Program-made: the position numbers and the translations under genes
Part shown: one piece after another, positions 619-10,138 of the stretch
How the letters are laid out: the number at the start of each line of letters is the position of its first letter
Numbering within the stretch: the stretch's first letter is position 1
Assembly (NCBI GenBank): GCA_020073705.1
Contig: JAIQES010000044.1
Span: 1 to 38,605, forward strand
Direction of reading: 5' to 3'
DNA length: 38,605 nucleotides
DNA from: Terriglobia bacterium
GTDB lineage: Bacteria; Acidobacteriota; Terriglobia; Acidiferrales; UBA7541
Notes under the pieces: generated by a model
What the model was told of the DNA's origin: nothing
Database searches by the model: none
Seen by the model: the letters and a program-made list of their open reading frames with translations, nothing else

Positions 619-3600
619 ATGGCAGTGGGTACGGCTAATTCGCAATGCCGCGTCTGGTGTGACCGATGCAGCGGTCTACTGGCAATCGCGGCTAGACCTC
701 TGGCAGCACTGGCCCTTGCGGCCTTGCTCGTCACGGCTTCAGCGAGCCCACAAACCCCTGCACGGACTGCATCGGCTCGTTCAGCACCTCCGCAAGCCAC
801 CGTGCCGGAGACTCCTCCCCCGCGGCCGGATAGGGGGCGCGCGCAACAGGCCTACCGAGCCGGACAACGAGCGGAACAATCTGGCGACTGGAAGACAGCC
901 TATACCGCGTATTCCGACGCCGTCACCTATGCTCCAGCGAACAGGGAATACCCACTATTAAGGGAACACGCGCGATTTCAGCTGGTCCAGGGACTTGCCG
1001 ACCTTGCTGAGCGGCAAGTGCTTGCCGGAGACGTGGCCGGGGCGCGTGAACAGCTTATGCACACTCTCGAAATTGATCCAAACTACGTGGTGGCACGTGA
1101 GCGTCTAGCGGAATTGAATTCCGATTCCGTCCGAGTGGCTCCGGAGAAAGGTCCGAGGCTCGCCGGTCCGCCCCGGCTGAACCCCAGGCCGGGAAGACGG
1201 GACTTCGATTATCGCGGCACAACGCGGGGAGTCTATGAAGAAGTGGGCCGGCAGTTCGGTGTGACGATGGCGTTTGACGGGGATTTGAATGACCGCTCCA
1301 TACGGTTCCGCGCGCCAAAAGTGGATTTTGAGACGGCCCTGCTGGTGCTCGCGCGGCAGACGCGCACATTCACACGCGTCGTGGATGAACACACCCTGTT
1401 CGTAACCGATGATAGCGTCCAGAAGATGCGGGAGTACGCCCCGGAGATCGAAAAGAGTCTGATCCTCCCTGCCTCGGTCAGCACTGACGAGATGAACGAA
1501 ACCGTGCGAATGATTCGCGAGATGACAGGGATCACTCGCACGCAGCTCGACACTGCCTCGCGAACCCTCACAGTTCGCAGCACCGAACAGAATGTCGCCC
1601 TGGCCCAGGCACTGGTCGAGCAAATCGAGCAGCCACACGGGGAAATGATGCTGGAGGTGGAGATTCTCGAAGTGGATCGAAATGCCGCGCACCAGTTAGG
1701 GATTACGCCGCCCACCTCTGCACAGGTGTTTACGCTCAGTTCGTCCGTAATCCGGCAGCTCCAACAGGCGCAAAACAGCGGGACGCTCCTACAGGTCCTG
1801 CAAAGCCTATTCGGCAGCGGCGGCGCGCTGGCAGGGGCTGCGGGCGGGTTGGCTTCCGTGCTGCCTCCACTAATCGCGTTTGGCGGAGGAAATACGATCT
1901 TTCTCGCGACCATGCCGGGGGCCACCGCGAATTTCAGCCAGACGCTCAGTGCGGTGCGCAGCGCGCAGCGCATCCTGCTGCGCGCGCAAGACGGAAAAGC
2001 AGCGACGTTCTTCGTGGGCGACCGCTTTCCGATTTCCCTCGCTTTACTTTCTTCCTCTTTGAACCCGACGACGACAGCTCTCGCAGGGCTTTTTGCGGGC
2101 TTGCTCCCGAGAACAGATTTCACGGTGGGAACTGCTCCTATTGGTGTGGCGATAGCCGATTTCAATGGGGATGGGTTTCCGGATCTGGTCGCCGCGAATC
2201 AGACGGACAGCACGACCAATGGCACAATATCCCTATTGCTCGGCGCAACTGGCGGCACATTCGGCACGCAGATTCTCATTACGATTCCGGGCGGTACGTT
2301 GCCATCGACGCCCTCGGCCGTTGCGGTGGGAGATTTCAACGGCGATGGCAGTATCGACATCGCCGTGACGGACTCGGCCAACAATACCGTAGCCATCCTG
2401 TTAGGCAGAGGCGATGGAACCTTTGCAGCGCCTGTGACGTACCCGACCGGGAATGCTCCTGTCGCGCTGCTAGCCAAAGACTTTAACGCCGACGGGTTTC
2501 TGGATCTCGCCGTCGTCAATCAGGCAGGCAACACAGTGTCAATTCTATTAGGCAACGGAGACGGAACATTTGCCGCGGCAACCGATTATCCGGTTGATGT
2601 GGCGCCTGCAGCGATTGCATCCGCCGATTTCAACGACGACGGAGTTTTGGACCTTGCGGTGGCCAACCACGGAGACAGTTCGGGTACTGGCGGCAACACG
2701 GTCTCCGTTCTGTTGGGCAACAGCGACGGCACATTCAAACCAAAAACCGATTATGCCACCGGAAATGGACCCGCAGGGATCGCCACGGCGGATTTCAATC
2801 TTGACGGGCGCACGGACCTTGCCGTTACTAATCAGGATGACAACACGGTTTCGATTCTGCTCGGCAACGGCGATGGCACTTTTGCCGCGCATACCGATTA
2901 TGCTGCGGGGTCAGGCCCGGTTGGAATTGTTGCCGCGAATTTCACGGGAGGCGCGAACCCTGCCCTGGCCGTTGCGGACCAGACCGGCAACAACCTGAGT
3001 CTTCTGATCGGCAACGGAGACGGCACGTTTACATCCCCTGTGTCGCTACCGACTGGAAACATGCCCGTGGCCGTGGCCGCAGCAGACCTGAATGGCGATG
3101 GGACATTGGACGTCGTAGATGCGAACGAATCCTCCAATTCGGTGACCGTCACGCTCAACACCCTGCGATCCGCGAATTCCGCTTCCTCTTTAGCTTCCGC
3201 TCAGTCTGCGTATCCAGCCGCACAGTATGTGGACCTCGGTTTGAAATTAAAGGCGACACCGCGGCTGCATAACGATGACGAAGTGACCCTGCAGCTTCAG
3301 TTCAACATCAGCAGTCTTGCCGGATCGTCCATCAATGGAATTCCGGTCCTGAGCAATCGAACGATCGAACAAACCATCCGGTTGCGTGAAAATGAAACTT
3401 CGGTTCTTTCCGGAGTCATTCAATCCAGCAATATTCGCTCCATCAGCGGCTGGCCCTGGACCTCGACGGCGCCCGGCGTCGGCTACTTGACCGGCGAAAA
3501 TACCGGCAACAGCCAGCAAAACGAGACCTTCATCATCATCACGCCGCGCGCGCTGCATCTGCCGCCGCATAACCCACGCGCCATTTACGCCGGACGCGAA

Positions 3601-3783
3601 GAGCCTTCCTCCCCAGGGGGACCTCCCGCGCTACCTCCCGGCGCGCCCCCAGAACCCAGCCCGAATCAAGCGCCAGCCCTGGATACTCAACCTGCACCCA
3701 CCGGTCCTGGACAGCCCGCGCCGGCCCCGGGCCCACAGCAGCCGCCCTTCGGCGCACCCCCGCAGCAGCGCCCCAGCTTATGA
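619..3783 (+). CDS. Secretin (GspD/PilQ-like) with an FG-GAP beta-propeller inserted in the secretin domain
   Basis: A 1054-residue exported protein. In order it has: a basic then hydrophobic N-terminus (about 20-45) resembling a signal sequence; a TPR-like stretch (about 75-170); an STN/N0-like domain (about 195-265); an N1-like secretin_N module (about 280-345); and the start of the secretin beta-domain, ending with the 'GDRFPI' signature around residue 475. Seven FG-GAP/VCBS repeats follow (about 497-850). The secretin domain then resumes at 'YVDLGLKLKATPRL' (from about 870) and reaches the conserved 'ETFIIITPR' end. A proline-rich tail of about 60 residues closes the protein. Secretins form multimeric outer-membrane pores for type II secretion or type IV pili. 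No gsp or pil genes are adjacent, so the partner machine is unknown. The intact frame argues against an assembly error. Confidence 0.85.
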   Translation: MAVGTANSQCRVWCDRCSGLLAIAARPLAALALAALLVTASASPQTPARTASARSAPPQATVPETPPPRPDRGRAQQAYRAGQRAEQSGDWKTAYTAYSDAVTYAPANREYPLLREHARFQLVQGLADLAERQVLAGDVAGAREQLMHTLEIDPNYVVARERLAELNSDSVRVAPEKGPRLAGPPRLNPRPGRRDFDYRGTTRGVYEEVGRQFGVTMAFDGDLNDRSIRFRAPKVDFETALLVLARQTRTFTRVVDEHTLFVTDDSVQKMREYAPEIEKSLILPASVSTDEMNETVRMIREMTGITRTQLDTASRTLTVRSTEQNVALAQALVEQIEQPHGEMMLEVEILEVDRNAAHQLGITPPTSAQVFTLSSSVIRQLQQAQNSGTLLQVLQSLFGSGGALAGAAGGLASVLPPLIAFGGGNTIFLATMPGATANFSQTLSAVRSAQRILLRAQDGKAATFFVGDRFPISLALLSSSLNPTTTALAGLFAGLLPRTDFTVGTAPIGVAIADFNGDGFPDLVAANQTDSTTNGTISLLLGATGGTFGTQILITIPGGTLPSTPSAVAVGDFNGDGSIDIAVTDSANNTVAILLGRGDGTFAAPVTYPTGNAPVALLAKDFNADGFLDLAVVNQAGNTVSILLGNGDGTFAAATDYPVDVAPAAIASADFNDDGVLDLAVANHGDSSGTGGNTVSVLLGNSDGTFKPKTDYATGNGPAGIATADFNLDGRTDLAVTNQDDNTVSILLGNGDGTFAAHTDYAAGSGPVGIVAANFTGGANPALAVADQTGNNLSLLIGNGDGTFTSPVSLPTGNMPVAVAAADLNGDGTLDVVDANESSNSVTVTLNTLRSANSASSLASAQSAYPAAQYVDLGLKLKATPRLHNDDEVTLQLQFNISSLAGSSINGIPVLSNRTIEQTIRLRENETSVLSGVIQSSNIRSISGWPWTSTAPGVGYLTGENTGNSQQNETFIIITPRALHLPPHNPRAIYAGREEPSSPGGPPALPPGAPPEPSPNQAPALDTQPAPTGPGQPAPAPGPQQPPFGAPPQQRPSL
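2107..3165 (+). repeat. Seven tandem FG-GAP/VCBS repeats within the secretin gene
   Basis: Seven units of about 49 codons each carry a calcium-loop motif of the D-x-N-x-D-G type, such as DFNGDGFPDL, followed by 'VSILLGNGDGTF'-like strands. The first loop begins at 2158. Unit 6 is degenerate, with ANFTGGANPA in place of the acidic loop. Coding DNA is partly conserved between units, for example GGCAACGGAGACGG near 2551 and 3010. Seven units is the number needed to close an integrin-type seven-bladed propeller. Confidence 0.8.
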
Positions 3784-3904
3784 TCGCGCCCGCTGGGACG
3801 CCGCCAGCTGGCCACACCTGTACTGGTCAGAGCACAGGACCTAATCACATATAGGTTGTCGTCTAACTGTGCTTCAACTTCAATTCCAAAATTACAAGGC
3901 GAAT

Positions 3905-4414
3905 TCAGGTCCGCGGGCGAGCCCAGGGCAGAGTGGCATTGGCAAAAGCGATTCGCCCGCGCAAGAGATGATAGAGATACGAGCCAAGGCAAAACTTGCC
4001 AAACAGCAGCGCCGCAAGAGCGATCACCACGAATGCTTCAAGAACCCACGCCGTAATCATCCAGCCTGCCATCAGCGCCAGCGCCGCCAGCAGCATGAAG
4101 CTCGCCGCCATGCCCTGCGCGAAACGGCGCGCGGGAGGCGCTGGACTGAGCGCCGGCTTCCCACGAGGCGCCGCGAGCACCCGGTTATAGAACACCTCGA
4201 AGGGATTCCACTTCGGAAAGACTACACTGCACCAGAGCAGCGCCGAAAGCACGAAAAACCAGATTGGCGATTGCAGCACGATCGCAGCCACCACCAGCAG
4301 CCCCACAACCCTCGGCTGAAAATACAACCCCGAAAAATGCATGTTGCAGGCCGCGTCCACCTCTTCGGCAAATCCCTGCTGCTTCATGAAGTTTCTTACT
4401 GCGGGTGAAATCAT
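3905..4414 (-). CDS. DUF4395-like integral membrane protein
   Basis: A 169-residue protein with about four hydrophobic segments in two pairs (about residues 35-65 and 103-150) separated by a short proline-rich basic loop. The arrangement, with a 'RRFAQGMAA' run before the second pair and a cysteine-containing 'FGKFCLGSYLY' end, resembles the DUF4395 family, whose function is not established. The ATG at 4414 is supported by GAGAGG about 8 bases upstream. It is transcribed divergently from the alpha/beta hydrolase. The second cysteine often seen in the family's C-x-x-C-like end is a serine here. The family call is from pattern memory; the membrane nature is clear. Confidence 0.6.
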   Translation of the reverse strand: MISPAVRNFMKQQGFAEEVDAACNMHFSGLYFQPRVVGLLVVAAIVLQSPIWFFVLSALLWCSVVFPKWNPFEVFYNRVLAAPRGKPALSPAPPARRFAQGMAASFMLLAALALMAGWMITAWVLEAFVVIALAALLFGKFCLGSYLYHLLRGRIAFANATLPWARPRT

Positions 4415-4778
4415 TTCGGCACCTCTCGCGAGTGAAGGCTCAGATACTTAGATCCGAAACATTCCTATCTGCAATGTCGCAGCGGAAATACTTTATAATT
4501 TTATCCCTCTTCTCCAACGAAGAACAGCATCCCCCGACTACGTAGGCCGCTCGAATTAGTCCCGGGGCTGTTCCTATAACATAAATCCCGGCCGGGTTCG
4601 CCTTTCCTCATGCCCGGCAGTGACCGCAATTGTGTTCTCGTTGAAGAAGGCCTAATTTGCAGGTTTTTCCTCACTTCGGAATTTCTTAAGGTCACGGCCG
4701 CAAAACTATATTGAAGAATGTTTGCAAAGGAGGGTACTGTAGGTGCTTCATTCGGCTTGAGCTTTCTGGGAGGCGCCC
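4415..4778. other. Divergent intergenic region, no gene seen
   Basis: This 364-base spacer separates the DUF4395-like gene from the divergent hydrolase. It is locally AT-rich and holds TATAAT at 4494-4499 on the plus strand, but without a convincing -35. Short open frames have no recognisable product or good ribosome site. Promoters for both flanking genes should lie here. Confidence 0.4.
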
Positions 4779-5855
4779 ATGGCTATTTTGATGAACCGAT
4801 CGTCTCGTCGTTCCTTTCTTCTCGCCGCGGCCCCGGCGGTCGGCGGAGGACTCGCGACGTTTGGACTCGCCGGGGAAGCATTCGCCGAGAGGGGCCGGCA
4901 AGCTCCGGCCATGGCAACCTCGGACAAGTCCAGCAAGGGGAAGATTCGGAGCAATGAATATTGGGCGCAGAAAGGTGACGTGAAGCTGTACATTTTTCGC
5001 AAGCGCCTGGGTGCGCCGCAGGCCGGAAAGCCAGCTCTGCCTGTGCTGTTCTTCGTGCATGGGTCCTCCGTGTCATCACGGTCGAGCTTCGACCTGACGG
5101 TGCCGGGGCATGGCGAGTATTCGCTGATGGACAAATTCGCGGGGTATGGTTTCGACGTCTGGACAATGGATTTTGAAGGATACGGCAGATCCACAAGGAC
5201 CGAGAGTAATTCGAATATCGCCTCGGGCGTTGAGGACTTGAAGGCCGGCGTGGAAGTTGTGGCGCGCGAAACGGGGCAGCAGCGCTATCACTTTTTCGGT
5301 GAATCCTCAGGCGCCTTGCGGGCCGGTGCGTTCGCCATGGCCCGGCCGGAGCGCATCAATCGGCTGGCTTTGGGGGCCTTCACCTACACCGGGCAAGGGT
5401 CGCCTACACTCGCCGACCGCGCAAAACAGCTGGAGTTCTACCGCACGCACAACCGGCGGCCGCGTGACCGCGACATGATTCGCAGCATTTTTACGCGCGA
5501 CAAACCTGGCACTTCCGATCCGGCCGTAGGTGAAGCGATGGCCGACGCCGAGTTGCCGTTCGGTGACAGTGTCCCGACCGGAACCTACCTCGACATGACG
5601 GCGAATTTGCCAATTGTCGACCCGCTCAGGGTGCATGCTCCCGTGCTGATCGTGCGCGGCGAATTTGATGGCATCGCCACGGAAGAAGATTTGCTCAACT
5701 TCTTCCAAAAACTCCCGAACCCGGACCGGCAGTTTGTCGTTCTGCCGGGCGACGCACATTCTGTTCCGATGGGCGTCAATCGCCAGCAGTTTTGGCACGT
5801 CCTGCGCGCGTTTCTAGAGATGCCGCCGCGTCTCGATGGCGGGAAGGCCAGTTAG
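4779..5855 (+). CDS. Tat-exported alpha/beta hydrolase
   Basis: A 358-residue alpha/beta-hydrolase-fold protein. The N-terminus carries a twin-arginine signal (SRRSFLLAAA, residues about 9-18) and a hydrophobic stretch ending near 'AFAE', so a folded product is probably exported to the periplasm. Catalytic elements are all visible: the oxyanion 'HG' at residue 94, a nucleophile elbow GESSG with Ser176, an acid at Asp297 in 'GEFDGI', and His327 in 'GDAHSV'. The ATG at 4779 follows GGGAGG at good spacing. Substrate cannot be told; esterase or lipase-like activity is the usual role. It appears to be a single-gene unit. Confidence 0.85.
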   Translation: MAILMNRSSRRSFLLAAAPAVGGGLATFGLAGEAFAERGRQAPAMATSDKSSKGKIRSNEYWAQKGDVKLYIFRKRLGAPQAGKPALPVLFFVHGSSVSSRSSFDLTVPGHGEYSLMDKFAGYGFDVWTMDFEGYGRSTRTESNSNIASGVEDLKAGVEVVARETGQQRYHFFGESSGALRAGAFAMARPERINRLALGAFTYTGQGSPTLADRAKQLEFYRTHNRRPRDRDMIRSIFTRDKPGTSDPAVGEAMADAELPFGDSVPTGTYLDMTANLPIVDPLRVHAPVLIVRGEFDGIATEEDLLNFFQKLPNPDRQFVVLPGDAHSVPMGVNRQQFWHVLRAFLEMPPRLDGGKAS

Positions 5856-5860
5856 GCTGG

Positions 5861-5883
5861 TTTCTTTCGCAGAAAGATTTTTC
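5861..5883 (+). terminator. Weak hairpin with T-run after the hydrolase gene
   Basis: TTTCT (5861-5865) pairs with AGAAA (5871-5875) and is followed by GATTTTTC. The stem is short and AT-rich, so this is only a possible intrinsic terminator. Confidence 0.2.
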
Positions 5884-5958
5884 GCGTCGAGCGGAATGGC
5901 CGTTGAGACCTTCGCGGAAATTCGCCGCACAATTCGATCTTTGAGATAAAAGTGTTGT

Positions 5959-5987
5959 TTGACGGGCGGGTTCCGGCCCTGCTAGTT
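5959..5987 (+). promoter_or_regulatory. Candidate promoter for pheA
   Basis: TTGACG (5959-5964) and CTAGTT (5982-5987) are separated by 17 bases, about 55 bases ahead of the pheA start. The -35 is good and the -10 is weak. Confidence 0.3.
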
Positions 5988-6043
5988 TGTGAGCCTATGT
6001 GCCGGTTGTCATTCGCAAATGAGGACTTCCGCCAGCGAACGAT

Positions 6044-6883
6044 ATGACCGCTCTTCGTCCATCTCCGAGAATCGCGTTCCAAGGCGAGCGTGGAGCATTC
6101 AGCGAGCAAGCTGCCGTCAAGCTGTTGGGCGAAGAAATCCAGCTCGTCCCGCGGCCGACCTTCGAAGCCCTCTATGCGGCCATTCAGGACGGCCTTGCGG
6201 ACTACATTCTCGCGCCGATTGAAAACAGCCTGGCCGGGTCCGTACACCGCTCCTATGACCTGCTGATTGCGAGCGGCCTCCATATCCAAGCCGAAGTCGT
6301 GATTCCGATTGTCCACAATCTCATCGGCCCTCCGGGTGCGACGTTCGAACGCGTTACCCAGGTTTCTTCCCACCCGGTCGCACTCGCCCAGTGCGAGCGG
6401 TTTTTCGCGAGCCACCCTTCAATCAAGCGCGTGACGGCCGACGATACGGCGGGAAGTGTGCGGGAAGTGGTGCGTTGCGGCGATCCCACCAAGGCGGCCA
6501 TCGCCAGCCGGCGAGCCGCGACAGTTTACGGTGGCACGATCCTGCGAGAACACCTGGAGGATCATCCGGAAAATTACACCAGATTCCTGCTCCTGGCGCC
6601 GTCCGCCGAAGTAGCGGAGAACGCCGACAAACTCTCTCTTGTCGTGCACCTGGCCCACAAGCCGGGTTCGCTATGCCTGGCCCTGAATGCGTTTGCGCGC
6701 CGCGACCTGAATTTGCTCAAGATCGAGAGCCGGCCGATCCCGGGAACACCTTGGAGTTATAGCTTCTATCTGGATCTGCAAGCGTCGCTCAAAGACCCGA
6801 ATACGGTCGCGGCGCTCGAAGAACTCAAGCAATTCACCGACTCCGTGAAGATCCTCGGTTGTTACCCGCAAGCAAAGGCTTGA
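6044..6883 (+). CDS. pheA: Prephenate dehydratase
   Basis: This cytoplasmic enzyme decarboxylates and dehydrates prephenate to phenylpyruvate, the penultimate step of phenylalanine synthesis. The 279-residue protein is the stand-alone form: a PDT catalytic domain (about 8-185) plus a C-terminal ACT domain (about 198-275), with no chorismate mutase domain. The 'GERGAFSE' opening, 'PIENSLAGSV', and catalytic T-R-F triplet (Thr179-Arg180-Phe181) are present. The ACT domain has 'KPGSL' and 'IESRPI', the regions that bind phenylalanine for feedback inhibition. It is followed at once by an ilvN relic and then ilvC, so it sits in an amino-acid block. Confidence 0.95.
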   Translation: MTALRPSPRIAFQGERGAFSEQAAVKLLGEEIQLVPRPTFEALYAAIQDGLADYILAPIENSLAGSVHRSYDLLIASGLHIQAEVVIPIVHNLIGPPGATFERVTQVSSHPVALAQCERFFASHPSIKRVTADDTAGSVREVVRCGDPTKAAIASRRAATVYGGTILREHLEDHPENYTRFLLLAPSAEVAENADKLSLVVHLAHKPGSLCLALNAFARRDLNLLKIESRPIPGTPWSYSFYLDLQASLKDPNTVAALEELKQFTDSVKILGCYPQAKA

Positions 6884-6884
6884 G

Positions 6885-7103
6885 AGCCTCAATGTCGTGG
6901 ACAGAAACAAGCCGGGCGTGTCACGATTAGCCTTCCTTGTTTCCGGCGGCGATCAGGCCACCGAGCAAGCCGTGGAACGAATCCGAAAATAGCTTGCAAG
7001 TACTGGAAGTGGAGGACTTGACGGGGCATAATGTTGACCGCCAATATCTCGTTCGGGTGCATTCGCTATGGCCGAGGACGCGCCGAATCGAAATCGGCTG
7101 AAT
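6885..7103 (+). pseudogene. ilvN: Degraded ilvN (acetolactate synthase small subunit) relic
   Basis: The spacer between pheA and ilvC still encodes pieces of an IlvN-type ACT protein. In one frame (codons from 6897) it reads 'VDRNKPGV', then directly 'SRLAFLVSGGDQATEQAV' and a TAG at 6990-6992. In the +1 frame from 6994 it continues 'LQVLEVEDLTG', then 'VDRQYLVRVHS', to a TGA at about 7099-7101. Intact IlvN has roughly 30 residues between NKPGV and G-V-S-R, and a C-terminal half that is absent here. The relic therefore shows an internal deletion, a single-base frameshift and a lost C-terminus. Its place just upstream of ilvC matches the common ilvB-ilvN-ilvC order. No ilvB is in the window. 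Confidence 0.75.
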
Positions 7104-7142
7104 ACTAGATTTTTACCGGATCTCAGGAAACTGGAAAACTGA

Positions 7143-8174
<1,032 letters not shown>

Positions 8175-8175
8175 A

Positions 8176-8200
8176 CGCGGGCCGGTGGCGTCCGCCCGCG
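8176..8200 (+). terminator. GC-rich hairpin between ilvC and ilvD
   Basis: CGCGGGC (8176-8182) pairs with GCCCGCG (8194-8200) across an 11-base loop, just after the ilvC stop. No T-run follows, so it may attenuate or stabilise rather than terminate. Confidence 0.3.
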
Positions 8201-8311
8201 GCACAGCCACACAGGTGAAGTCGCATTCCCGGGCCACCATCTATCAGACTTCGCCGGGACGTAACTCTTCCCTGCTGATATCCGCACTGATCGATAAATT
8301 TCGGAGGAATC

Positions 8312-9994
8312 ATGGATTCGCGTCTCAGAGAACACAGCCATATCATGCTCGACGGACCTTCCCGGGCGCCTGCGCGTTCCTATTTTAAGGCTATCGGCTT
8401 GTCAGACAACGATCTGGCCAAGCCGATGGTTGGCGTCGCGAACACATGGATCGAAGCGATGCCCTGCAATTCCCACCTGCGTCACCTTGCGGAAAAAGTA
8501 AAGGAGGGAATCCGCGCTGCGGGCGGGACTCCGTTGGAATTTAACACCATCGCCATCAGCGACGGCGAGTCCATGGGCACCGAAGGAATGAAAGCGTCCC
8601 TGGTGAGCCGCGAGGTCATCGCCGATTCGATTGAGTTGGTCGGGCGCGGCTATATGTTCGATGCCATGGTGGCCCTGGCCGGTTGCGATAAGACCATCCC
8701 CGGCACGGCGATGGGCCTGATCCGTTTGAACGTGCCCAGCCTCGTCCTGTATGGCGGCTCGATTCAGCCGGGCCGATTCCGTGGCCGGGACGTAACCATT
8801 CAAGATGTGTTCGAAGCAGTCGGCGCTCACTCTGCCGGCAAAATCACGGACGCGGACTTAAAGGAGATCGAAAGTGTCGCCTGTCCCGGGGCCGGTGCGT
8901 GCGGCGGACAGTTCACCGCGAATACGATGGCCTTGGCTCTTGAATTCATCGGGCTTACGCCGTTGGGATTGGGTAATGTGCCGGCAACGGACCGGCGCAA
9001 GGATGATGCGGCCTACCGTTCCGGCACGCTGGTCATGGACCTGCTCCGCCAGGGTGTAACTCCGCGGCACATTTTGACGCGCAAGGCGTTCGAAAATGCG
9101 ATTGCCTCCGTTGCCGCAACAGGAGGCTCGACCAACGCAGTTCTCCATCTACTGGCGATGGCTAAGGAGGCGGAGATCGAACTTCATCTCGAGGAATTCG
9201 ACGCCATCAGCCAAAGAACGCCGCTGCTGGCCGATATGAAGCCCTGGGGCAGATTCACGGCCGTGGACCTGTACAACGCCGGCGGAACTGCTTTGCTTGC
9301 GAAACGCCTTCTCGACGCGGGCCTGCTTCATCAAAACCAAACTACCGCCGGCTTGAAAACTCTGGAGGAAGAAGCGCTCGCCGTTAAGGAACAGCGAGGA
9401 CAGGAAGTCGTGCGTCCTCTGGCAGATCCGATAAAGAAAACGGGCGGGCTTATGATCTTGAAAGGCAACCTCGCTCCCGAAGGGTGCGTGCTCAAGACGT
9501 CCGGCCACGAGAAGCCCTATCATCGCGGACCGGCGCGCGTGTTTAATCGTGAAGAGGACGCGATGGATGCCGCGGTCAAGGGCTTGATCAAGAAGGGGGA
9601 CGTTGTCGTCGTGCGGTATGAAGGTCCCCGCGGAGGCCCCGGCATGCGCGAAATGCTCGGCCTCACGGCCGCCCTGGTGGGACAGGGGCTGGGCGAGGAC
9701 GTGGCCCTGCTTACCGACGGGCGCTTCAGCGGCGCAACACGCGGGCTGATGGCCGGACACGTCGCGCCCGAGGCCGCACGCGGAGGCCCCATCGCCATCG
9801 TCGCCGAAGGAGACTCGGTAGTTTTCGATCTCGATGCCAGAAAACTGCAGGTCGAACTGAGCGACGCTGAAATCAAGGCGCGCCTTGCAAAATGGAAAGC
9901 CCCCGCGCCACACTACAAGACCGGCGTATTCGCCAAGTACGCAGCATTGGTAAGTTCCGCTTCTCTGGGAGCGATCACTCGCGCCGGCATCTAA
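8312..9994 (+). CDS. ilvD: Dihydroxy-acid dehydratase
   Basis: An iron-sulphur enzyme that dehydrates dihydroxy-isovalerate and dihydroxy-methylvalerate to the 2-keto acids, the step after IlvC. The 560-residue length is typical. Cluster cysteines appear in 'MPCNSH', 'AGCDKTIPG' and 'CPGAGACGG'. The C-terminal swivel domain carries 'GPRGGPGM' and 'TDGRFSG', both family signatures. The ATG at 8312 is preceded by CGGAGGA at ideal spacing. Its TAA stop (9992-9994) coincides with the first bases of a palindromic repeat element that separates it from the convergent amrS. The C-terminus looks complete for the family. Confidence 0.97.
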   Translation: MDSRLREHSHIMLDGPSRAPARSYFKAIGLSDNDLAKPMVGVANTWIEAMPCNSHLRHLAEKVKEGIRAAGGTPLEFNTIAISDGESMGTEGMKASLVSREVIADSIELVGRGYMFDAMVALAGCDKTIPGTAMGLIRLNVPSLVLYGGSIQPGRFRGRDVTIQDVFEAVGAHSAGKITDADLKEIESVACPGAGACGGQFTANTMALALEFIGLTPLGLGNVPATDRRKDDAAYRSGTLVMDLLRQGVTPRHILTRKAFENAIASVAATGGSTNAVLHLLAMAKEAEIELHLEEFDAISQRTPLLADMKPWGRFTAVDLYNAGGTALLAKRLLDAGLLHQNQTTAGLKTLEEEALAVKEQRGQEVVRPLADPIKKTGGLMILKGNLAPEGCVLKTSGHEKPYHRGPARVFNREEDAMDAAVKGLIKKGDVVVVRYEGPRGGPGMREMLGLTAALVGQGLGEDVALLTDGRFSGATRGLMAGHVAPEAARGGPIAIVAEGDSVVFDLDARKLQVELSDAEIKARLAKWKAPAPHYKTGVFAKYAALVSSASLGAITRAGI

Positions 9995-10138
9995 CAGTTC
10001 GTTCAAAAAGGCCTCTGAACCTGTCATTCCGAGCGTAGCGAGGAATCCCTCTTACACAAAACCGAAGAACAAGAGAGATTCCTCGTCGCTTCGCTTCTCG
10101 GAATGACGAGATGCACGAGTTCCTCAACAAACTGCTAG
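9991..10138. mobile_element. MITE-like palindromic repeat element, copy A
   Basis: A 148-base element without coding capacity between convergent ilvD and amrS. Its ends are inverted repeats: CTAACAGTTCGTT on the left, and CTAGCAGTTTGTT when the right end is read on the minus strand. Inside lie long arms starting GTCATTCCGAG, forming a hairpin of about 30 base pairs with a short AT-rich loop near 10055-10070. The TAA of ilvD and the TAG of amrS both fall on its terminal bases. Related copies are at 17760-17820 and 35296-35445. Acting as RNA, it would form a strong hairpin from either strand and could end both transcripts. Confidence 0.8.

What the first reader, a model, noticed from the sequence alone, without database searches (positions are those of the whole stretch)
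619..3783. Seven-bladed FG-GAP propeller nested inside a secretin
The secretin beta-domain is split into two clearly recognisable halves ('GDRFPI' before, 'YVDLGLKLKATPRL' to 'TFIIITPR' after) by about 350 residues containing exactly seven FG-GAP/VCBS units. Seven is the number needed for a closed propeller, so this looks like a complete nested domain, not random repeats. Such propellers bind ligands or calcium. Placed in a multimeric pore, they could form a ring of a dozen or more propellers at the mouth or inside the vestibule, acting as a receptor, substrate selector or plug. I am not aware of a described system with this layout.
Basis: partly seen in the sequence, partly recalled or inferred. 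Interest (0 to 1): 0.8.

Follow-up and report, generated by a model that had tools for sequence, protein, structure and literature searches.

The report
Secretin gate carrying seven-bladed propeller
A group of uncultured Acidobacteriota encode an outer-membrane channel protein in which the tip of the loop that normally closes the channel holds a complete integrin-like propeller domain, so each channel would probably carry a ring of a dozen or so propellers.

Summary
Window 619-3783 is one 1054-aa frame whose secretin beta-domain is split by a seven-bladed FG-GAP propeller. The predicted propeller is confident (closest solved folds: integrin alpha, Z 36.5).

It is not a misassembly. 59 distinct complete orthologs, all in one clade with this family (Candidatus Acidiferrales-like MAGs), carry the insert at the same site, each with seven blades. 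Fourteen orthologs without it, two from this family and twelve from others, have 25-27 residues there.

Twelve to fifteen propellers would not fit in a known secretin lumen, so the gate loop more likely works as a stalk holding propellers outside the channel. Six longer inserts that were scanned also hold Ig-like domains between blades, which favours the cell surface. The gene looks like an orphan: this genome has separate PilQ-like and GspD-like secretins. Side of the membrane, ligand and partner are inferred. My literature searches found no description.

The parts
619..3783 (+). whole gene, 1054 aa: TPR - two ring-building-type domains - secretin beta-domain with nested propeller - Pro-rich tail
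   Evidence: one ORF; Pfam
619..747 (+). likely signal peptide (residues 1-43)
   Evidence: read by eye from the sequence; no predictor was run
832..1125 (+). TPR-like helical domain, residues 72-169
   Evidence: model helices; NCBIfam TPR-secretin families match here weakly
1198..1410 (+). N0/STN-like domain, residues 194-264
   Evidence: strand-helix order in the model; identity of the domain inferred
1447..1632 (+). second ring-building-type (Secretin_N-like) domain, residues 277-338
   Evidence: model; Pfam Secretin_N at 300-339, E 4.5e-4, below cut-off
1642..2040 (+). first half of the secretin beta-domain, residues 342-474
   Evidence: profile alignment to XcpD 5wln through this region; model strands
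2017..2019 (+). G467, first glycine pivot of the central gate (= XcpD G466)
   Evidence: invariant in A1 and A3; mapped through
2041..2109 (+). N-terminal tether, residues 475-497, low confidence
   Evidence: pLDDT under 50 over residues 475-490
2110..3153 (+). seven-bladed integrin-like FG-GAP propeller, residues 498-845
3154..3219 (+). C-terminal tether, residues 846-867, low confidence
   Evidence: pLDDT under 50 over residues 850-867
3220..3558 (+). second half of the secretin beta-domain, residues 868-980
   Evidence: Pfam Secretin 845-977; model strands
3238..3240 (+). G874, second glycine pivot of the central gate (= XcpD 496)
   Evidence: invariant in A1 and A3; mapped through
3601..3780 (+). 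proline-rich C-terminal tail
   Evidence: sequence

Best explanation
This is a secretin whose central-gate loop (gate 1) has become a tether for a folded, integrin-alpha-like seven-bladed propeller. Shown by sequence and model: the split, the seven blades, the site between the two gate pivots, and its conservation across one family. Inferred: subunits form the usual 12-15-mer ring in the outer membrane; the propellers do not fit inside the lumen, so the two roughly 23-residue tethers pass along the inner barrel and hold a crown of propellers at the outer mouth, as a gate that has swung outward. The crown binds something outside the cell (glycan, matrix or protein, perhaps helped by calcium) and at the same time covers the exit, so that this orphan secretin works as a surface-exposed binding ring on a channel rather than as a plain pore.
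For: Insert at the tip of the XcpD central-gate loop: the alignment puts it at the XcpD stretch holding T477 and S480, the cross-linked gate tip. Both pivots invariant in the 60 sequences of A3. Published view that the gate flips upward toward the barrel wall on opening (passages). Seven blades in 59 of 59 inserts. Six of six scanned long inserts hold He_PIG or Big_2 Ig-like domains lying between blades, domains typical of surface proteins (recalled). Best solved-fold matches are integrin alpha propellers, a binding fold. Volume: about 350 residues x 110 Da x 1.21 A3/Da = 47,000 A3 each, 0.56-0.70 million A3 for 12-15, against 0.61 million A3 for a solid 90 x 96 A cylinder, the pIV inner barrel diameter and barrel-to-N3 height (constants recalled, sum by hand).
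Against: No assembled structure: stoichiometry, side and outer-membrane location are untested here. Model pTM is 0.48, so the placement of the propeller relative to the barrel is not given. The secretin part has patches of low pLDDT. Foldseek matches to secretins run over 820-840 alignment columns but with TM-score 0.09-0.15 and large rmsd, so they rest on local structure and sequence, not on a rigid superposition. Calcium motifs vary from 1 to 7 per insert, so calcium may not be essential. No ligand, substrate or partner is known.
Confidence: 0.5

Rival explanations
1. Same architecture, but the propellers hang on the periplasmic side, in or below the vestibule, and act as substrate selectors or as a plug that swings away.
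For: The gate loop sits mid-barrel and the tethers could reach either way (model linkers). In closed secretins the gate points to the centre. The TPR and N-domains would make a periplasmic chamber that could work with them.
Against: The periplasmic vestibule has the same volume problem. Ig-like He_PIG and Big_2 domains nested in some propellers are typical of the cell surface (recalled). Known gate opening is described as upward.
Confidence: 0.25
2. The protein keeps the secretin fold but no longer moves cargo: a ring-shaped adhesin or scaffold that uses the secretin barrel only as an outer-membrane anchor.
For: Orphan gene: no secretion or pilus genes beside it in the loci examined. This genome's pilus locus has its own PilQ-like secretin and another, GspD-like secretin sits beside a pilin-like gene. 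Only two T2SSF platform frames for three secretins in this genome.
Against: The two gate pivots are invariant and N-terminal ring-building-type domains are kept, which suggests that a working gate and a partner are still under selection. An unlinked gene can still serve a shared motor.
Confidence: 0.2
3. Assembly artefact or chance repeats.
For: The window is a MAG contig and the gene lies near its left end.
Against: 59 distinct orthologs from many MAGs have the same frame-preserving junctions and seven blades, and 14 uninserted orthologs show the empty site.
Confidence: 0.01

Closest known systems
T2SS secretin XcpD/GspD (PDB 5WLN; PMC10550240)
   Same: Secretin beta-domain; gate loop between two glycine pivots; profile match over both sides of the insertion site
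   Different: XcpD has 30 residues between pivots, this protein 407 with a folded propeller; here TPR plus two N-domains, no linked T2SS genes
Vibrio-type T2SS secretins with a top (cap) gate (PMC10550240, passages)
   Same: A secretin that gained an extra element near the mouth
   Different: The top gate is a beta-strand loop of tens of residues at another site (apical region); here a whole domain is placed in the central gate
Integrin alpha / bacterial FG-GAP and VCBS propellers (PMC3192720, PMC8023676, passages)
   Same: Seven blades, DxNxDG-type loops, fold match Z 36.5, rmsd 2.5, 339 residues
   Different: Those are not inserted in a pore; neither paper contains the word 'secretin' in the text searched (the word 'secretin' was not a term, where 'secret' gave 2 hits)
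PilY1 propellers at type IV pilus tips (search listing only)
   Same: Propeller working with a pilus or secretin machine
   Different: PilY1 is a separate tip protein, not part of the secretin chain

Membership tests
secretin superfamily | PF00263 secretin domain over the curated cut-off | tested here: met
   88.5 bits against 27.5 for the C half; the N half aligns through the XcpD profile match
secretin superfamily | two gate glycine pivots | tested here: met
   G467 and G874, invariant in A1 and A3 (mapping)
secretin superfamily | 12-15-mer ring in the outer membrane | not testable with these tools
   no multimer prediction on hand
integrin-like / FG-GAP seven-bladed propeller | seven four-stranded blades, closed ring | tested here: met
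   28 strands; the first strand precedes blade 1 and the last blade ends one strand short, as in closure of the ring by the N-terminal strand (closure inferred from strand order); Z 36.5 to integrin alphaIIb
integrin-like / FG-GAP seven-bladed propeller | calcium-type DxNxDG loops | tested here: met
   6 motifs in the window protein, 1-7 per insert over 59 inserts under a strict pattern; binding not tested
T2SS GspD (TIGR02517) | NCBIfam cut-off | tested here: not met
   73.9 bits against 351.35
T2SS GspD (TIGR02517) | encoded with other T2SS genes | tested here: not met
   neighbours in relatives are FTR1, FtsX/MacB, truB, rbfA, infB, nusA (representative loci scanned)
T4P PilQ (TIGR02515) | NCBIfam cut-off; pilMNOP linkage | tested here: not met
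   65.3 bits against 284.35; a PilQ-like secretin with pilM-N-O-P-like genes is on contig C34 (gene names by eye)

The most novel reading that the evidence does not exclude
A ligand-gated secretin: the gate itself is an integrin-like receptor. Binding of a surface ligand by the propeller crown pulls the gate loops at their glycine pivots and opens or closes the outer-membrane channel, coupling adhesion or sensing to secretion or uptake.
Probability: 0.15. Interest if true: 0.92.

Novelty: new variant of a known kind. Interest (0 to 1): 0.72.

Why it matters
Secretin gates are known as short, poorly ordered loops. Here a whole family keeps a 40-kDa folded domain, always of seven blades, at the gate tip. 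That is a natural experiment on how secretin gates work: it shows that the loop tolerates a large cargo, predicts that the closed gate of textbook structures cannot form in the usual way, and offers a rigid domain by which gate position could be seen directly by cryo-EM or tomography. If the propellers are outside, it is a receptor ring built into a giant pore.

Tried and rejected
Rejected: misassembly (59 orthologs). Rejected: random repeats (shuffles). Rejected as shown: blade-by-blade descent. Among 42 seven-blade proteins (blades 1-6), beyond pairs with about 60% identity in the N half, blade identity at the same position (0.46-0.48) is no better than at other positions (0.45-0.47). This may be blade turnover or saturation; I could not tell. 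The insert as a copy of another FG-GAP gene in this genome: none found, the only FG-GAP_3 matches are in this frame. phmmer of the propeller alone against PDB sequences: no match; only the fold search links it to integrins.

The uninserted ortholog L061 folded less well (pLDDT 68.1, pTM 0.36, 14 sequences), so it was a weak control. One gain against two changes: the best tree needs two changes of state; holding all propeller rows together is not rejected (p-AU 0.364), so a single gain is allowed, not shown.

Scope limits: the phylum search (396 genomes) scored only two candidates per genome and printed a capped list; in the printed rows only the window's own hit covers both secretin and propeller. 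In one search (120 genomes) the list was also capped; I followed the long frames L154, L155 and L156 and saw gaps of 27, 27 and 30 residues and no blades. A copy outside this family is therefore not excluded. Rows dropped before the 74-row count: loci below L034 (repeats of the same genes), N-half score under 140 or C-half score under 95 (contig-end truncations; broken frames such as L039, L064, L134, L136), and duplicates. L153 in that count is the GspD-like paralog and is not among the 14 uninserted orthologs.

Full report
What is there. Window 619-3783 (+) is a single frame of 1054 aa. Pfam sees FG-GAP_3 (1.4e-51, seven stretches) and only the C-terminal part of the secretin domain (residues 845-977, E 4.9e-25). 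NCBIfam finds GspD, PilQ, MshL and SctC models, all far below their cut-offs.

Structure. AlphaFold2 on residues 69-997 with 60 relatives (mean pLDDT 82.3, pTM 0.48) gives five TPR-type helices, two strand-helix domains, secretin strands, seven four-stranded blades at 498-845, and secretin strands again. The tethers on both sides (475-490, 850-867) are below 50. VIA-align's best rows are integrin alpha propellers (Z 36.5, rmsd 2.5, 339 residues). Foldseek lists propellers first and also secretins (PulD 6hcg E 5.5e-9, PilQ 6w6m 7.4e-9, InvG) over 820-840 columns, i.e. on both sides of the insert, but with low TM-scores. The low pTM means that the relative position of propeller and barrel is not predicted.

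Where the insert sits. A profile of 14 orthologs without insert aligns to XcpD (5wln) over the whole region. In XcpD the central gate is residues 466-496 with glycine pivots at its base and T477/S480 at its tip (PMC10550240, passages). Counting letters in the alignment, chain position + 34 gives G466, T477, S480 and G496 on matching residues. These pivots are G467 and G874 here; both are invariant in 32 and in 60 aligned sequences. The insert falls on the tip of the loop. Pivot to pivot is 30 residues in XcpD and 407 here; over 54 measured relatives the median is about 416.

How conserved it is. The N half was sought in 61 related genomes (60 with a match, paralogs included), 95 of the order (93), 120 of another order (119) and 11 of a third (11), and in named genome contigs (64 loci). 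Of 74 distinct frames with both halves, 59 carry the insert (369-681 aa, median 404) and 15 do not; one of the 15, L153, is a paralog. The 14 true orthologs without insert have 25-27 residues there: two from genus g10 of this family, twelve from families f2, f3, f11 and f13. All propeller rows fall in one clade with the two g10 rows (70 rows, SH-aLRT 94). With a blade HMM made from all blades, every one of the 59 inserts has seven blades. The titles place the clade in Acidobacteriota, several as Candidatus Acidiferrales or Acidiferrum (one record is titled Betaproteobacteria); order lineage.

Third-level nesting. Eight of 59 inserts are over 500 aa. Six were scanned: four hold He_PIG and two hold Big_2 Ig-like domains. 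In L063, L120 and L125, whose coordinates I read, they lie between propeller blades. L118 and L119 have the same length but were not scanned.

Context. In relatives the gene lies between a divergent FTR1/FtsX-ABC group and a convergent truB-rbfA-infB-nusA group: of 41 loci, many cut by contig ends, infB-like in 22, FtsX-like in 21, truB-like in 20, FTR1-like in 17, nusA-like in 17 (crude ORF clusters; names from representatives). The window keeps the partial FTR1 at 2-475 (named by cluster), but the other side is an alpha/beta hydrolase, prephenate dehydratase, ilvC and ilvD. The genome has three PF00263 matches: C34, with pilM-N-O-P-like genes by eye; C69, TPR-secretin-cohesin beside an N_methyl pilin-like gene and another pilin-like ORF by eye; and this one. 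T2SSF platform domains give two frames. In 41 family genomes, 27 have four T2SSF matches, and 24 of these 27 have three or more secretin matches over the cut-off, so a surplus secretin is usual. This supports 'orphan' but does not rule out a shared motor.

How it most likely works. Twelve to fifteen propellers of about 47,000 cubic angstroms would fill or exceed a solid cylinder of the pIV barrel's size (90 x 96 angstroms). I therefore infer that the gate loop acts as a stalk and the propellers sit at the mouth; published work describes the gate as flipping upward. Ig-like domains in some inserts favour the outside. A binding crown on a channel is my best reading (0.5); periplasmic selector 0.25; anchor-only adhesin 0.2.

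Literature. Searches of the open PMC library gave no listed paper on a propeller inside a secretin; (Acidobacteri + secretin + FG-GAP) returned none. Listings were capped (25 of 428, 15 of 4,162, 12 of 35, 12 of 161), subscription journals are largely missing, and only passages of PMC10550240, PMC8563730, PMC9218822, PMC8023676 and PMC3192720 were read.

Noticed in passing
L063, L094, L120, L123 (He_PIG); L125, L129 (Big_2): Ig-like domains inside the propeller insert: He_PIG between blades 3 and 4 in L063 and L120, three Big_2 between blades 1 and 2 in L125: domain within domain within domain.
   Followed up: partly
G000:C69 (L176:5810-9135): A TPR-secretin-cohesin protein followed by two pilin-like ORFs, probably the GspD of this genome's T2SS-like machine.
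   Followed up: partly
G000:C38 (L178, L183): Two T4P/T2SS-type motor groups on one contig; the second (T2SSF, T2SSE, PilM/PilN-like, a pilin-like ORF) has no secretin match beside it.
   Followed up: partly
blades of 42 inserts: Blade number stays at seven while blades at equal positions lose recognisable correspondence beyond close relatives.
   Followed up: partly
L039/L082 (G023), L064 (G032), L134, L136: Frames of some relatives are broken inside the gene; MAG errors or decayed copies, not resolved.
   Followed up: no
L128: A record titled Betaproteobacteria (BOG MAG) falls inside the acidobacterial clade; probably a mislabelled MAG.
   Followed up: no
window 3784-10000: The conserved truB-infB-nusA neighbourhood of relatives is absent here; prephenate dehydratase, ilvC and ilvD follow instead.
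   Followed up: no
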